From Alteracholeplasma palmae J233 (GTDB taxonomy: Bacteria; Bacillota_I; Bacilli_A; Acholeplasmatales; Acholeplasmataceae), in the NCBI RefSeq assembly GCF_000968055.1, contig NC_022538.1, positions 1,399,499 through 1,463,498 of the forward strand: a stretch of DNA of 64,000 nt, given 5' to 3'. The position numbers were made by a program, and so were the translations under genes. Shown here piece by piece: positions 17,700 to 27,013 of this stretch. Below the pieces are notes generated by a model. It did no database searches. It worked only from the letters and a program-made list of their open reading frames with translations, and was not told the origin of the DNA. Each line of letters starts with the position of its first letter. The first letter of the stretch is position 1.

Positions 17700-17785
17700 T
17701 TGCATATTTTATTACAATCAATTTGCTTTTTTCTCATATAATCCTTACAATAAACGTATATACAACTAAAAAGAGAGGTTTTCAT

Positions 17786-18517
17786 ATGAATATAAACATT
17801 GCCTTGTGTGATGATGATAAAGATGTTTTATCTCACTATAAAAAAATGATTTCAAATATTTCTACACCTTATATTTTAAATATTAATACCTTTTTAAATG
17901 CTATGGACTTATTAGATGCAGTAGAAAATGACTTAAACTACTATCATCTTGTTTTACTAGATGTGGAAATGTCCAATTATAATGGGATAGAAATATCAAA
18001 ATCATTGCGAAAAAGCGGTTTTCAAAATGAAATCATTTTCCTAACAGATTATGTTGATTATGCTTATGAAGCTTTTGACTCTTATCCTTTTCAATATTTA
18101 CATAAAAAAACCTTGACCAAAGAAAAATTCACTTCAGTCTTAACTAAAGTCTTTGCTTTACAAGATAAAAAACAACGAGAGGTCTTTATCGCAAACACTA
18201 AAGGTGAAACTAAAATCATTCCCTATAGTTTTATTGCCTGTTTTGAGGCACAAGGCAGATACATAGTCATTTATTATGAGATGAATAAATCATTTGAGTT
18301 TATACATACTATCCAGGAATTAGAAAACAAACTTCCAAAGTCTGATTTTATTAGAGTCCACCGATCATATATCATAAACATGGCTTATTTAGATTCCTTT
18401 CAAGGCAACTACTTAAAACTTAAAAATGGTCTTATTATTCCAATAGGTGCTACAAGGTTAAAAGAAGTTAAAGATTTATTTACTAAATACTTAATTAAAC
18501 AAACAGAGGAGGAGTAA
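17786..18517 (+). CDS. LytTR-family response regulator (AgrA-like), RR1
   Basis: 243 residues from the ATG at 17786, which has AGAGAGG upstream; the longer in-frame extension lacks a site. The receiver domain (residues 1-120) has the acidic pocket CDDD, phospho-acceptor Asp59 in LLDVEM, and the late receiver segment DSYPFQYLHKK. The C-terminal LytTR DNA-binding domain (about 137-238) shows VFIANTKGETKIIPYSFI, FEAQGRYIVIYY and FIRVHRSYIINMAYLDSF. It is followed after seven bases by the AgrC-like kinase gene and so forms a two-component system with it. It probably binds the 21-bp-spaced repeats nearby. Confidence 0.93.
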   Translation: MNINIALCDDDKDVLSHYKKMISNISTPYILNINTFLNAMDLLDAVENDLNYYHLVLLDVEMSNYNGIEISKSLRKSGFQNEIIFLTDYVDYAYEAFDSYPFQYLHKKTLTKEKFTSVLTKVFALQDKKQREVFIANTKGETKIIPYSFIACFEAQGRYIVIYYEMNKSFEFIHTIQELENKLPKSDFIRVHRSYIINMAYLDSFQGNYLKLKNGLIIPIGATRLKEVKDLFTKYLIKQTEEE

Positions 18518-18524
18518 TCATATT

Positions 18525-19847
18525 ATGGGATTTATTATTGGTTTTATCGCTATTTTTATTTATTTTAGAAAAAATTTCAAAATTAGAAAACAAAAATGGT
18601 ATGATTTTGTCATTGCTGGTTTAGCTTTTATTGCGTATACAATTGCTAGTTATTACATAGATTTCGGCTTTTATCATTTATTATTAATTTTTGCAGTCCA
18701 TGTTTCCATCTATTACCTTGCAGTTGGTATGCGCTGGATCGAAGCTTCTTTTGCAGGTACACTTCTACTCTTTACTTTCTATTCTACGCGAGGTGTCATT
18801 CTTTCTATTTATGCCTTAATAAAAAATCAAAGCATTGCTGAAATTTCTAATTCTAGCGATGCCTTGATTATTAGTCATATTGCGTCTATAGTAGGTTTCT
18901 TCATACTTCTTGTTTTTGTTAAATTTATGAAAAGAGAAAAATTTGTTTTACTTTTCTCAGTTAAAAGACAAACTATTTTCTTAACCTTATATACTTTAAT
19001 TGAAGTTTGCTATATCTATATTATCAATCAAGGGCGTTATGTCTTAACGAATAATATTTGGTATTCTTTAACTTATCTTTCTACAAGTATTCTTTCGATT
19101 GCGGTATTTGGTTATATTTTACATAACATCATTAGATTAATAAAAACAATTGAAAATGAAATATATACTGTTAGATTAGAAGAACAATTAGATAATCAAA
19201 TTATTCATTACGAACAATATCAATCTTATATCAAAGAACTAGCAAAGTTTAAGCATGATCATGGTAACCTGATGAAATCTCTTAAACAATTAATTAAGTC
19301 TAACAATAATGAAAAAGCCCTAGAATTACTTGATGAATCTATTGAAGACGATATTTTTGAAGCCATGTCAGCTATTGAAAAAACATCTAATTCATTTATC
19401 GTAGACGCAATCATCTTTGATTATGCTAATAAATGTAAAATCAATCATATAGATTTTAAATCAAGTGTTAAATTTCCTAATAGTATTAACTTTTCACAGT
19501 TAGAATTAATGAAAATTTTTAGTAATGTTTTAAGTAACGCTCTTGAAGCATCTATTAAAAGTCCTGAAAATAAAAGATTTATTACAATAAGCAGTAAAGC
19601 TGTCTCTAACTGGCTTGTGATAAAAATTTCAAACAATTATGAAACAGATATTATTGTAGAAGATGATCAGTATATCACCAGTAAATCAGATAAAGTTTTA
19701 CACGGGTTTGGACTTAGAATTATAAATGATATTATTACTAAAAAGGGGGGACTTGTAAAATTCTTTATTGATAAAAATAAAAAAGTCTTTTCAGTACAAC
19801 TCTCGATTCCTAAAACTACATTAGATAATCAAAAAGATGATGAATAA
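18525..19847 (+). CDS. AgrC/ComD-like sensor histidine kinase
   Basis: 440 residues. The first ~205 residues carry six or so membrane spans with short loops, as in peptide-sensing HPK10 kinases. A coiled-coil-like stretch leads to the H-box LAKFKHDHGN (likely His244, compare FRHDYxN in AgrC). The N-box is SNVLSNALEAS (about residues 333-343) and the G-box LHGFGLRII (392-400), forming a HATPase_c/GHKL domain. GGAGGAG precedes the ATG. It pairs with RR1. No AgrB or AgrD-like gene is seen next to it, so the signal is unknown. Confidence 0.92.
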   Translation: MGFIIGFIAIFIYFRKNFKIRKQKWYDFVIAGLAFIAYTIASYYIDFGFYHLLLIFAVHVSIYYLAVGMRWIEASFAGTLLLFTFYSTRGVILSIYALIKNQSIAEISNSSDALIISHIASIVGFFILLVFVKFMKREKFVLLFSVKRQTIFLTLYTLIEVCYIYIINQGRYVLTNNIWYSLTYLSTSILSIAVFGYILHNIIRLIKTIENEIYTVRLEEQLDNQIIHYEQYQSYIKELAKFKHDHGNLMKSLKQLIKSNNNEKALELLDESIEDDIFEAMSAIEKTSNSFIVDAIIFDYANKCKINHIDFKSSVKFPNSINFSQLELMKIFSNVLSNALEASIKSPENKRFITISSKAVSNWLVIKISNNYETDIIVEDDQYITSKSDKVLHGFGLRIINDIITKKGGLVKFFIDKNKKVFSVQLSIPKTTLDNQKDDE

Positions 19848-19873
19848 CAATTTATTCACCATCTTTTTTTTAT
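19834..19873 (+). terminator. Terminator of the RR1-kinase operon
   Basis: AAAGATG..TGAATAA pairs with TTATTCA..CATCTTT (19834-19867), followed by T's. It overlaps the kinase stop codon. Confidence 0.85.
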
Positions 19874-20382
19874 GCGATATTTTCTGCAATGACTTCAAAT
19901 TCAAGTTTAATAATAATCTTGCTCTCTATTAATTTTAAATACTCTTCTTTGTTTTCTGGCTCATTTTTAAAAGAAACTTCTATTTCATATACTTTTTTAG
20001 TACCTGCAACAATTTCTTCTTCATTTACTAATGATACTTTAAATAAATAATTTAATCTTTCATTAGAAATTTTTTGATTTATATCCTCTAATTGTACGTT
20101 TACTTTTAAAGTACCTCTGGCTCCGCTTGCTCCAGTACCTGTCCATAAAACATCATATTTAAATATTTGTGAAGATTCTCCCTCTATTCCTTCTGGAACC
20201 AAAATCTCTATTTTTGAGTTATCCATAACTTGTAATGTAGTATTTACTTTCTGTGCATCTTTAATTTTAATAAAGTAATCACTATTATTTATATTATTTT
20301 GATTGATAGAAAGAAAGATGATTAACACGAGTAATATTAACAAGGGTATTAGAATATATAAATTCTTTTTTATTTTATCCAT
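19870..20382 (-). CDS. Membrane-anchored homolog of the exported proteins, paralog C
   Basis: 170 residues from the ATG at 20382 (AGAGAGGTGAG upstream); upstream codons fall in the promoter. Residues 1-30 form one hydrophobic span (KNLYILIPLLILLVLIIF) but the GGAYAYW cleavage region of paralogs A and B is missing, so it may stay anchored. The body keeps the family blocks: ILVPEGIEGESSQ, LWTGTGASGARGTLKVNV, LNYLFKVSLV, IVAGTKKV, and EEYLKLIESKIIIKLEFEV. It lies between the kinase and RR2 with its own direct-repeat operator and has no RCC1 partner. Confidence 0.78.
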   Translation of the reverse strand: MDKIKKNLYILIPLLILLVLIIFLSINQNNINNSDYFIKIKDAQKVNTTLQVMDNSKIEILVPEGIEGESSQIFKYDVLWTGTGASGARGTLKVNVQLEDINQKISNERLNYLFKVSLVNEEEIVAGTKKVYEIEVSFKNEPENKEEYLKLIESKIIIKLEFEVIAENIA

Positions 20383-20412
20383 AAATCTCACCTCTCTGCT
20401 TAAAGCACCTAG

Positions 20413-20418
20413 ATTATA
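20413..20418 (-). promoter_or_regulatory. -10 box of paralog C promoter
   Basis: Read leftward TATAAT, about 30 bases before the ATG. The -35 position is ACAAAA. The operator starts 29 bp upstream. Confidence 0.65.
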
Positions 20419-20447
20419 CCCTATCGATGGCATCATTTTGTATGTGG

Positions 20448-20478
20448 ATGTCATGAAAAGTGGTTTTTATGTCGTGAA
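20448..20478 (-). promoter_or_regulatory. LytTR-type direct-repeat operator 3
   Basis: ATGTCATGAA (20448-20457) and ATGTCGTGAA (20469-20478) on the plus strand, spaced 21 bp start to start. It lies between divergent paralog C and RR2. Confidence 0.75.
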
Positions 20479-20534
20479 CTTTTGATTTTTATTTTCAAAA
20501 TTACATTACAATAAATATAAGGATGTGAGAAATT

Positions 20535-21251
20535 TTGAAAATAAACATAGCCATCTTGGATGATGATGAAAAGGTATTAAATAATTACAATGAGGTAATT
20601 AATAACTTAGATTCAAATAATAACTTTAAAACAGACCTCTTTTCTAAGGAAAGAACTTTTTTTCATAAAGCAATATCAGATATCAATTTTTATCATATAT
20701 TAATTCTTGACATTAATTTAGGACAAAAAAATGGGATAGAAACAGCTAAAGAACTGAGAAATAAAGGTTATATGAATGAAATTATTTTTATAACTAACTA
20801 TGTAGACTATGCTTTCGATGCTTTTGATGCCTATCCTTTTCATTACTTATTAAAAGAAACTACTAGTGAATCTGAATTCTCATCTATTTTACTTAAAGCC
20901 GTGAATACTCAGATAGAAAAACAAAGTGATATTTTTAGAGCAACCTCTAAGGGTAAAACTATTCTTATTCCTTATCATAAGATTGAGTATTTTGAAGTTA
21001 TTGGCAGATACATAACTGTCTTTTATGATAATAAAAGCTTTAAATTCATAGATACTATTACACATTTAGAACAAAAACTTCCTCAAAAGAAATTTGCACG
21101 AGTGCATAGATCCTATATTATAAATATGCGTTTTATAGATTCTTTCCAAGAAGAATATCTCTTTTTAAGAAATGGAAAATTAATTCCTTTGGGTAAAACT
21201 CGTATTCAAGAAACAAAAAAACTCTTTTCAGAGTTTTTAAGTTTATCATAA
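20535..21251 (+). CDS. LytTR-family response regulator, RR2 (no adjacent own kinase)
   Basis: 238 residues. It starts with TTG at 20535 behind AAGGATGTGAG; no suitable ATG is present. Receiver domain: LDDDE acidic pocket, Asp59 in LILDINLG, FDAYPFHYLLKE. LytTR domain: FRATSKGKTILIPYHKIEYF, VIGRYITVFYD, ARVHRSYIINMRFIDSF. It is closely similar to RR1, so it probably arose by duplication. No separate kinase gene accompanies it; the kinase at 18525 could serve both. It may read the same direct repeats and modulate the same promoters. Confidence 0.92.
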   Translation: MKINIAILDDDEKVLNNYNEVINNLDSNNNFKTDLFSKERTFFHKAISDINFYHILILDINLGQKNGIETAKELRNKGYMNEIIFITNYVDYAFDAFDAYPFHYLLKETTSESEFSSILLKAVNTQIEKQSDIFRATSKGKTILIPYHKIEYFEVIGRYITVFYDNKSFKFIDTITHLEQKLPQKKFARVHRSYIINMRFIDSFQEEYLFLRNGKLIPLGKTRIQETKKLFSEFLSLS

Positions 21252-22706: not shown

Positions 22707-22861
22707 TAAAAAAAACCACTAAATTCTTGACTAAAGAATAATGGTCACATCTACATTTGACAACATCCATTTATAAAAAACAAAAGGAGTTGACAATCGT
22801 AGTCGCAAAATTTACGGTTCTGCGGTAGAGACTTGATCACCATATCTGATCGGATATACGA
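22707..22861 (-). promoter_or_regulatory. Guanine-type purine riboswitch with terminator
   Basis: Read leftward the aptamer (22797-22861) has P1 TCGTA/TACGA, P2 GATCA/TGATC with loop GATATGG, J2/3 AAGTCTCTACC, P3 GCA-type stem with the loop ACCGTAAAT identical to the Bacillus xpt aptamer, and J3/1 GACTACGA. The discriminator base (position 74, xpt numbering) is C, predicting guanine/hypoxanthine rather than adenine. U48 of the usual J2/3 is C. Downstream an imperfect ACCA..TTCTT / AAGAA..TGGT hairpin (22715-22745) is followed by eight T, an OFF-switch terminator. Confidence 0.9.
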
Positions 22862-22880
22862 TATATCGAATACGAGTATA

Positions 22881-22909
22881 ATTATAGCAAACATTTATTT
22901 AAATGTAAA
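22881..22909 (-). promoter_or_regulatory. Promoter for the purine permease
   Basis: Read leftward: TTTACA (complement of 22904-22909), 17 bp, TATAAT (complement of 22881-22886), just upstream of the aptamer. Confidence 0.8.
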
Positions 22910-23056: not shown

Positions 23057-23215
23057 TTATTGTACAATAATAATACGACTATGTTTGATAATTGATGGAC
23101 TGTGTTCAATAATTTCTGGTTGTTTTCCGTTACCAAATTGCGCTGAAAGTTCACCAACAGCAATCGTTGTAACTAATAATGCCATAGTCAATACAACTTT
23201 GAACATTTTTTTCAT
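23057..23215 (-). CDS. Small exported peptide precursor (candidate pheromone)
   Basis: 52 residues from an ATG with a strong AAGGGGGTGAG site. It starts MKKMFKVVLTMALLVTTIAVG, a Sec-type signal segment with a possible cut after ELSA. The 27-residue tail contains imperfect heptads PEIIEHS / PSIIKHS and ends RIIIVQ. Gene size, signal sequence and divergence from an XRE-TPR regulator (next gene) resemble PapR/SHP-type pheromone genes of RRNPP systems, and the Ile-rich C-terminus is reminiscent of streptococcal SHP peptides. No homology search was possible, so the role is inference; the open frame and its ribosome site are directly visible. Confidence 0.7.
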   Translation of the reverse strand: MKKMFKVVLTMALLVTTIAVGELSAQFGNGKQPEIIEHSPSIIKHSRIIIVQ

Positions 23216-23261
23216 TAATACTCACCCCCTTTTATAACCTTATTTTAGGCGTGAGCATTTT

Positions 23262-23290
23262 TTAACACTAGGGCGAAACTGTCCTATAAT
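23262..23290 (+). promoter_or_regulatory. Promoter for the XRE-TPR regulator
   Basis: TTAACA (23262-23267), 17 bp, TATAAT (23285-23290). The start codon at 23305 lies only about eight bases after the expected transcript start, so the mRNA may be almost leaderless. An imperfect GTG-N12-CAC dyad (23251-23268) overlaps the -35. Confidence 0.7.
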
Positions 23291-23304
23291 GAATGGAGAT
23301 TAAT

Positions 23305-24225
23305 ATGGAATATCTATCATATTCAAAAGAACTATCATTATTCTTTGAAAAGCTTAGAATATTAAGAGGTTTCTCACAAGAATCATTTACTTCTGAAATT
23401 ATATCTTTAAGACAGTACCGACGTTATCTTAGTGGTGAGTATCAAATACCACAGTCAGTGATCAATCTTCTTTCTAAAAGACTTGGATTAAGACCTGAAC
23501 ATCTTATACTAGAATTTGAATCTAAAAGAATTCAAGAAGCTAATACCTTAAATAACTTTCATAATGCCATTGTGAATAAAGACTTTAAAAAGGCTGATGA
23601 ATATGAAAAAAATATTATCAAAGATAATATTATAGATGCTAATAATTTACTTATTTATGAGTATTCTATTTTATTAAGAAAATATTATATGAATTTAATT
23701 TCAGAACCTACTTTCATCGATGATGTCAAAGAATTAATTTCATATTCTACTTTATTTAATAAAAATGCTTATTCTTCTACTGAACTGATTATAGTTTCAA
23801 GCCTATTATCATTTTCTAGTTTCAAGGAAAAAGATAAAATCATCACAATTATAAAAGGATTCCTTTCTCATAAAACTTATCTGTTAAGCGGACAAAACGA
23901 AAAAACGCTACTCCTTTGTTACTACAGACTAGCGGATTATGCAGGGCTTAATGGAAATTTCAGTGAAGTCATCACCTTATGTAATGAAGCAATTAACTAT
24001 GGAAAACAAGTTAAATCAAATTATCTACTTGCTGATTTCTTTTATTACAAAGCTCTTGCCTATCACTTTCTTGATGATCCTTCTCATACGAATGATTCAC
24101 TTTTAAAACTATTTTATACACTTAAGATAGAAGATAACAATAAAAAAATCACCTATTACAGTGATTTAATTAAAAACTATTTTAATGATGATTTAATAAC
24201 ATTAGTTAGCAAAATAGACAAATGA
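23305..24225 (+). CDS. XRE-family regulator with TPR-like C-terminus (RRNPP/Rgg-like)
   Basis: 306 residues from the ATG at 23305 (GGAG six bases upstream; the ATG at 23293 has none). Residues 1-65 form an XRE helix-turn-helix (KELSLFFEKLRILRGFSQ, LRQYRRYLSGEYQIPQ, LLSKRLGLRP). The remaining ~240 residues are helical repeats of TPR type (NAIVNKDFKKADEYEKNI; YYRLADYAGLNGNFSEVITLCNEAINYG; FFYYKALAYHFLDDP). Length and architecture match Rgg/PlcR/NprR-class cytoplasmic receptors that bind re-imported peptides. The divergent 52-residue exported peptide gene 89 bp away is the natural ligand candidate. It ends in TGA within its terminator. Confidence 0.82.
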   Translation: MEYLSYSKELSLFFEKLRILRGFSQESFTSEIISLRQYRRYLSGEYQIPQSVINLLSKRLGLRPEHLILEFESKRIQEANTLNNFHNAIVNKDFKKADEYEKNIIKDNIIDANNLLIYEYSILLRKYYMNLISEPTFIDDVKELISYSTLFNKNAYSSTELIIVSSLLSFSSFKEKDKIITIIKGFLSHKTYLLSGQNEKTLLLCYYRLADYAGLNGNFSEVITLCNEAINYGKQVKSNYLLADFFYYKALAYHFLDDPSHTNDSLLKLFYTLKIEDNNKKITYYSDLIKNYFNDDLITLVSKIDK

Positions 24226-26778: not shown

Positions 26779-27013
26779 AAAAAAACGTCCTTAAACAAAT
26801 TCTAAGGACGAATGATCGCGGTACCACCTTAGTTCTAATTACAATTATTATAATTAGCACTCTTCTTGTAACGTAAGATCACGTTTAAATCTACATATCG
26901 ATTTAAAAGCTCCAAGACCATTTTCGCTAAACTTTTTTATCTATTTACACCAGCCATAGACTCTCTTTAAAAGAAAATTTAGTTACTCTTCTTTTCATTG
27001 CTATATTTAGTTT
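26779..27013 (-). promoter_or_regulatory. T-box leader (methionine) of metG-yitT
   Basis: Read leftward the leader contains AGAGAG and GGCTGGTG typical of T-box stem I, a candidate AUG specifier (complement of 26919-26921), the canonical T-box core AAGGTGGTACCGCG (complement of 26817-26830) and the terminator CGTCCTTA/TAAGGACG (26786-26810) with a T run. Uncharged tRNA-Met pairing with UGGN in the T-box bulge should form the antiterminator. The specifier fits the downstream metG. Confidence 0.93.

What the first reader, a model, noticed from the sequence alone, without database searches (positions are those of the whole stretch)
23057..24225. Candidate RRNPP quorum-sensing pair: 52-residue peptide gene divergent from an XRE-TPR regulator
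A tiny gene with a very strong ribosome site encodes a signal peptide plus a 27-residue tail (PEIIEHS-PSIIKHS-RIIIVQ). It is divergent, 89 bp away, from a 306-residue XRE plus TPR-like protein of Rgg/PlcR size. Divergent shp-rgg pairs and exported PapR/Phr precursors are the classical layout, and the Ile-rich end recalls SHP pheromones. Such cytoplasmic peptide signalling is not, to my knowledge, described in mollicutes.
Basis: partly seen in the sequence, partly recalled or inferred. Interest (0 to 1): 0.85.

Follow-up and report, generated by a model that had tools for sequence, protein, structure and literature searches.

The report
Peptide quorum sensing in wall-less bacteria
A tiny secreted-peptide gene beside a regulator in Acholeplasma palmae belongs to a widespread, apparently unreported family of peptide-based cell-to-cell signalling circuits in cell-wall-less bacteria, with a shared DNA switch that also sits in front of a predicted pore-forming protein gene and a probable short RNA.

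Summary
Observation confirmed: a 52-aa signal-peptide ORF (23057-23215, -) lies 89 bp from a divergent 306-aa HTH-TPR regulator (23305-24225, +) in A. palmae J233. The regulator occurs in 45/88 Acholeplasmataceae genomes. Of 77 core regulators, 71 have a divergent small ORF (53 by a strict signal-peptide scan; about 3 of 200 control genes). Many precursors carry 2-8 tandem copies of a ~13-aa unit, kept by synonymous change. The predicted fold matches RRNPP receptors (PlcR, ComR, PrgX, Rgg). A palindrome (TAGGACA-N4-YGYCCTA; GACA core as in the ComR box) lies at fixed distance from the peptide promoter. In this genome it recurs with identical spacing before a MACPF lipoprotein gene next to the Opp operon, a membrane protein gene, and a probable ~135-nt RNA. 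Best reading: an autoinducing RRNPP-type pheromone circuit, apparently new for Mollicutes. Export, binding and activation are inferred, not tested.

The parts
23057..23215 (-). Pheromone precursor gene, 52 aa (stop included in the coordinates)
   Evidence: conserved divergent position in the family
23141..23215 (-). Codons for the predicted signal peptide, residues 1-25
   Evidence: sequence reading; hydrophobicity scan
23105..23137 (-). Codons for the conserved core FGNGKQPEIIE, residues 27-37
   Evidence: identical in L062 with 5 synonymous codon changes; similar FGxxxxPEIxE in L003, L004, L070, L095
23221..23232 (-). Shine-Dalgarno sequence AAAGGGGGTGAG
23242..23247 (-). -10 box TAAAAT of the peptide promoter
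   Evidence: 22 nt after the CCT of the operator, as in 43 of 45 distinct sites
23269..23286 (-). Palindromic operator TAGGACAGTTTCGCCCTA
23285..23290 (+). TATAAT, likely -10 box of the regulator; overlaps the operator
   Evidence: sequence reading
23305..24225 (+). HTH-TPR regulator, 306 aa (alternative start 23293)
23410..23424 (+). Codons R36-R40 of the DNA-reading helix; R36 and R40 invariant in 44 homologues and aligned with the two DNA-reading arginines of ComR

Best explanation
An autoinducing RRNPP-type quorum-sensing circuit. The precursor is exported by Sec and cut by signal peptidase; further proteolysis frees a short peptide from the FGNGKQPEIIE core; the oligopeptide permease Opp takes it back in; it binds the TPR domain of the divergent regulator, which then binds the GACA-N4-TGYC palindrome as a dimer and activates promoters that carry the palindrome in place of a -35 box, 22 nt upstream of the -10. 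Targets are its own precursor gene (positive feedback) and, in A. palmae, a secreted MACPF lipoprotein, a membrane protein and a probable short terminated RNA. Shown here: the conserved pair, purifying selection on the peptide, predicted fold, operator, fixed promoter geometry, further operator sites, and genes for Opp, signal peptidase I and an M50 protease. Inferred: export, the exact mature peptide, re-import, binding, and activation rather than repression.
For: Pair conservation against control genes; core identical in the nearest relative with synonymous changes only; tandem unit arrays with 802 synonymous to 223 nonsynonymous codon differences between copies and dN below dS in most close pairs; AlphaFold model pLDDT 89.6 whose best 50 PDB matches are PlcR, ComR, PrgX, Rgg2/3, NrpR and one Listeria regulator; profile matches to Rgg2 (2e-4) and ComR (6e-4); operator at fixed distance from the peptide start (sd 6.0) but not from the regulator (sd 12.6), p 4e-8; four operator-plus-(-10) sites in the own genome with no match of the reversed pattern; ComR reads GACA with R35/R39, aligned with invariant R36/R40; Opp, signal peptidase and M50 genes present; regulator and peptide similarity correlate over 46 representatives, r 0.48, 0 of 2000 permutations (expected from shared descent too).
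Against: No experiment. TM-scores to solved receptors are only about 0.5 (rmsd 8-10 A). Pfam TPR models match few members weakly. Six of 77 core regulators have no recognisable peptide gene and eight have leaderless ones, which do not fit Sec export. The mature peptide is unknown, and a core of 11-13 residues is longer than the 5-10 stated for RRNPPA pheromones. Target regulation rests on site sequence and spacing only; the A. laidlawii group shows only the peptide promoter under the strict pattern.
Confidence: 0.87

Rival explanations
1. The small protein is a secreted antimicrobial or other effector, and the regulator is its dedicated transcription factor, sensing something else.
For: Secreted small peptides with repeats; other operator targets look like competition genes (MACPF, RHS-type).
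Against: Receptor fold is that of peptide-pheromone receptors; identical repeated short acidic units and peptide-receptor co-inheritance; no dedicated immunity gene recognised beside the window's peptide gene.
Confidence: 0.06
2. The peptide acts inside the producing cell, as an intracellular switch or timer, rather than between cells.
For: Leaderless divergent ORFs with the same core in eight members.
Against: Most members, including the window's, have a signal peptide with a strong SD; Opp is present, with a target gene next to its operon.
Confidence: 0.05
3. The 52-aa frame is a chance ORF next to an ordinary XRE regulator.
For: AT-rich genome, short frame.
Against: About 3 of 200 control genes against 53-71 of 77 regulators; synonymous-change signature.
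Confidence: 0.02

Closest known systems
ComR-ComS (XIP) of streptococci
   Same: HTH-TPR receptor; pseudo-palindromic operator with GACA/TGTC inverted repeat; two arginines in the recognition helix at the same aligned positions; operator upstream of the signal gene.
   Different: Precursors here mostly carry a classical signal peptide and often several pheromone units; core peptides are acidic with Pro-Glu/Asp; gene pair is divergent; no sigma-X-type target was recognised among the four own-genome sites.
PlcR-PapR of the Bacillus cereus group
   Same: Best fold match; Sec-type precursor; activation of secreted proteins including, here, a predicted pore former.
   Different: The operator here is TAGGACA-N4-YGYCCTA, not the PlcR box (the latter from memory); core is near the signal peptide in the window, not at the C-terminus.
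Rgg-SHP of streptococci
   Same: Divergent small gene and HTH-TPR regulator (layout from memory); profile similarity to Rgg2/Rgg3.
   Different: The Ile-rich end is not conserved in relatives; precursors are longer and have signal peptides; operator is ComR-like.
Multi-copy Phr propeptides (Rap-Phr3T, Rap-Phr105)
   Same: Several pheromone copies in one precursor (PMC11343458).
   Different: That paper states 1-4 repeats; here up to 8. Rap receptors act by protein contact; these carry an HTH.

Membership tests
RRNPP(A) peptide receptors, broad sense | N-terminal HTH (except Rap) | tested here: met
   HTH_3 hits in 21 of 26 members; below the curated cut-off in the window protein; helices in the model
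RRNPP(A) peptide receptors, broad sense | C-terminal TPR-like superhelix of RRNPP type | tested here: met
   Model and Foldseek: PlcR, ComR, PrgX, Rgg; TM about 0.5
RRNPP(A) peptide receptors, broad sense | Adjacent gene for a secreted propeptide | tested here: met
   secretion predicted from hydrophobicity only
RRNPP(A) peptide receptors, broad sense | Processed peptide re-imported by Opp | not testable with these tools
   OppA, C, D, F genes present; transport not testable
RRNPP(A) peptide receptors, broad sense | Peptide binds the TPR domain and switches activity | not testable with these tools
   needs binding assay or complex prediction
ComR subfamily | GACA/TGTC operator read by two conserved arginines | tested here: met
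ComR subfamily | Control of comX/sigma-X and competence | tested here: inconclusive
   No sigma factor recognised at the four own-genome operator sites, but no dedicated search for one was made
Rgg-SHP | Short hydrophobic pheromone at the C-terminus | tested here: not met
   Conserved part is FGNGKQPEIIE, not the Ile-rich end
PlcR-PapR | PlcR box operator | tested here: not met
   The conserved site is TAGGACA-N4-YGYCCTA; PlcR box from memory
RRNPP_detector strict candidates | Receptor matches TPR profile models | tested here: not met
   Window protein has no TPR hit; 5 of 26 members match TPR_8 weakly. Pfam used here, not the detector's own models

The most novel reading that the evidence does not exclude
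A separate lineage of RRNPP-type quorum sensing spread through free-living mollicutes and related orders, with pheromone precursors of up to eight units, which through a ComR-box-like operator switches on competition genes (MACPF, RHS-type secreted proteins, radical-SAM genes) and short RNAs in cell-wall-less bacteria.
Probability: 0.6. Interest if true: 0.9.

Novelty: new variant of a known kind. Interest (0 to 1): 0.82.

Why it matters
I found no report of peptide quorum sensing in mollicutes, which are usually regarded as poor in regulation. Here signal, receptor, operator, promoter geometry and candidate targets can all be read from sequence, and the circuit is present in A. laidlawii, a cultured model species, so it is directly testable. 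Long arrays of pheromone units give a natural test of why bacteria multiply pheromone copies, and the conserved operator offers a way to map regulons in dozens of genomes. The published large survey covered Firmicutes and viruses and asks for TPR model matches, so it would have missed this family.

Tried and rejected
SHP-like Ile-rich pheromone: rejected, not the conserved part. A single-protein scan of genome contigs found nothing and the full alignment was too diverse; closer sequences worked. Pfam/NCBIfam give nothing useful beyond HTH_3. Neighbours of the pair in the window (purine riboswitch plus permease; YitT/DUF2179 protein) look unrelated; no target next door. Strict operator search in the A. 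laidlawii group finds only the peptide promoter. A common sequence among the non-coding targets: none found across the terminated ones. Distant tandem paralogues without peptide genes (L024, L026, L086, L090-L093) were left out of the family.

Full report
WHERE. By the same table G063 (contig of 1,496,992 bp) is A. laidlawii PG-8 and G050 (1,877,792 bp) is A. brassicae 0502. The identifications rest on size alone.

OBSERVATION. Both genes are as described. The small ORF starts at 23215 (-), has the Shine-Dalgarno sequence AAAGGGGGTGAG and encodes 52 aa. The regulator starts at 23305 (+), with an in-frame ATG at 23293. 89 bp lie between the start codons.

A FAMILY OF PAIRS. A paralogous regulator in the same genome (38% identical, L002) also has a divergent signal-peptide ORF, of 75 aa. 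A profile of the regulators finds members in 45 of 88 Acholeplasmataceae genomes, 52 of 160 of the order and 57 of 395 genomes drawn from the class. There is none in the small-genome genus g8 (0.3-0.9 Mb), which I take to be phytoplasmas. Named records include Peloplasma aerotolerans, Tenericutes MO-XQ, Mycoplasmatota zrk7 and zrk2, and Izemoplasma. Of 77 core regulators with enough upstream sequence, 53 have a strictly defined divergent signal-peptide ORF within 200 bp. Ten more were missed only by thresholds or contig ends, or lie further off, and eight have a leaderless divergent ORF with a similar core. Among control genes in the same loci the rate is about 3 of 200, once duplicate regulators are removed.

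THE PEPTIDES. A common unit of about 13 residues has the form L-[DG]-F-x-x-x-G-x-P-[ED]-[WFYIL]-[VI]-x. Many precursors carry it in tandem: LDFHNSGNPEYEE eight times in L010, LDFDNCGEPDWVR six times in L029, LDYEDSGFPEWIE three times in L009; 32 of 69 precursors have a 6-mer at least twice, although one of these (L011) is masked sequence. 48 of 69 tails match a loose core pattern, against a mean of 13.6 and a maximum of 26 in 500 shuffles; the A. laidlawii group has another core. Copies within arrays differ by 802 synonymous and 223 nonsynonymous codon changes (the unit finder tolerates few amino-acid changes, so this ratio is biased). Close orthologue pairs mostly give dN below dS, for example 6 synonymous and 0 nonsynonymous between A. 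laidlawii and G034. The window's nearest relative has the identical FGNGKQPEIIE with 5 of 11 codons changed synonymously, although the regulators are only 45-48% identical. The next nearest have FGDKGHPEIFE, FGEDTEPEIVE and FGEDQEPEIVE. This marks the active part better than the Ile-rich end, which relatives do not share.

THE RECEPTOR. AlphaFold2 on 44 sequences gives pLDDT 89.6 and pTM 0.79. The best 50 Foldseek matches in the PDB are PlcR, ComR, PrgX, Rgg2, Rgg3, a streptococcal NrpR, and one Listeria regulator of unstated type. TM-scores are about 0.5 with rmsd 8-10 A: the class of fold is clear, the curvature differs. Sequence profiles reach Rgg2 at 2e-4 and ComR at 6e-4.

THE OPERATOR. 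Between the genes lies a palindrome, TAGGACAGTTTCGCCCTA in the window (23269-23286, -). A site scoring 12 or more of 16 is found at 59 of 69 pairs. Among these its distance to the peptide start is nearly constant (most 45-60 nt, sd 6.0), its distance to the regulator is not (14-62, sd 12.6; variance-ratio p 4e-8). A -10 box follows 22 nt after the CCT in 43 of 45 distinct sites although 21-25 was allowed; I see no good -35 box. That is the geometry of an activator site (inference). In the window the site also overlaps a TATAAT before the regulator, which would allow autoregulation (inference). The ComR box has the same GACA/TGTC inverted repeat, read by R35 and R39 (PMC5131891); the aligned R36 and R40 here are invariant.

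OTHER OPERATOR SITES. Operator plus -10 occurs four times in the own genome, the reversed pattern never: at the peptide gene; before a lipoprotein with a MACPF domain (E 3e-13) and Listeria-Bacteroides repeats, directly after the Opp operon; before a 588-aa predicted membrane protein; and before a stretch of about 135 nt that ends in a terminator-like hairpin, upstream of a QueH-like gene. Across the family, 25 of 88 genomes have matches, against one match of the reversed pattern. In relatives the downstream genes include CBM96 and RHS-type proteins, radical-SAM proteins and an AAA_15 ATPase, and there are further terminated non-coding stretches (L165, L178, L190). That these genes are regulated is inferred from site and spacing.

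MACHINERY. Genes for OppA, C, D and F, signal peptidase I and an M50 protease are present. OppB was not looked for separately.

MECHANISM AND RIVALS. An autoinducing RRNPP-type circuit explains all of this. An antimicrobial peptide, an intracellular timer and a chance frame are weighed under the rivals; the leaderless variants are the best reason to keep the timer open.

NOVELTY. Searches of open-access papers found no RRNPP system in mollicutes. The large RRNPP_detector survey covered Firmicutes and viruses. I class the finding as a new variant of a known kind: it works like RRNPP signalling, but fits none of the named subfamilies in full.

Noticed in passing
window 17723-21251: Two LytTR response regulators and a GHKL histidine kinase with a 194-aa protein of no Pfam family between them (19870-20454): a possible second, agr-like signalling system a few kb from the pair.
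   Followed up: no
window 22780-22881 (-) and 26801-27007 (-): Purine riboswitch before the xanthine/uracil-type permease gene, and a T-box leader before a methionyl-tRNA-synthetase-like gene.
   Followed up: no
L002:231-1394 (own genome, about 1,542.9-1,544.1 kb): The paralogous pair: peptide gene followed within about 10 bp by a codirectional gene that looks like a nucleotidyltransferase toxin by eye but has no Pfam hit.
   Followed up: partly
G000:C1:1494723-1494765 (L200): Operator and -10 in front of a roughly 135-nt non-coding stretch ending in a terminator-like hairpin; fold z-score -2.1. A quorum-controlled small RNA would be unusual.
   Followed up: partly
L028:2878-3768: Three identical 52-aa signal-peptide genes in tandem, spaced 366 bp, upstream of a regulator in A. 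brassicae; ORFs of another peptide type lie between them.
   Followed up: no
L007, L047, L048, L055, L061, L071, L074, L075, upstream of the regulator: Divergent ORFs with a good SD and a similar core but no signal peptide: a leaderless form of the signal.
   Followed up: partly
L168, L172, L173, just after the -10 box: Shared leader sequence (ATTATGAGATGATGTAATTTTCG) in front of unrelated target genes.
   Followed up: no
G004:C1:271854-274541 and G050:C1:192457-193152: Regulator copies that are split or carry a stop, next to peptide genes: apparently decaying circuits.
   Followed up: no
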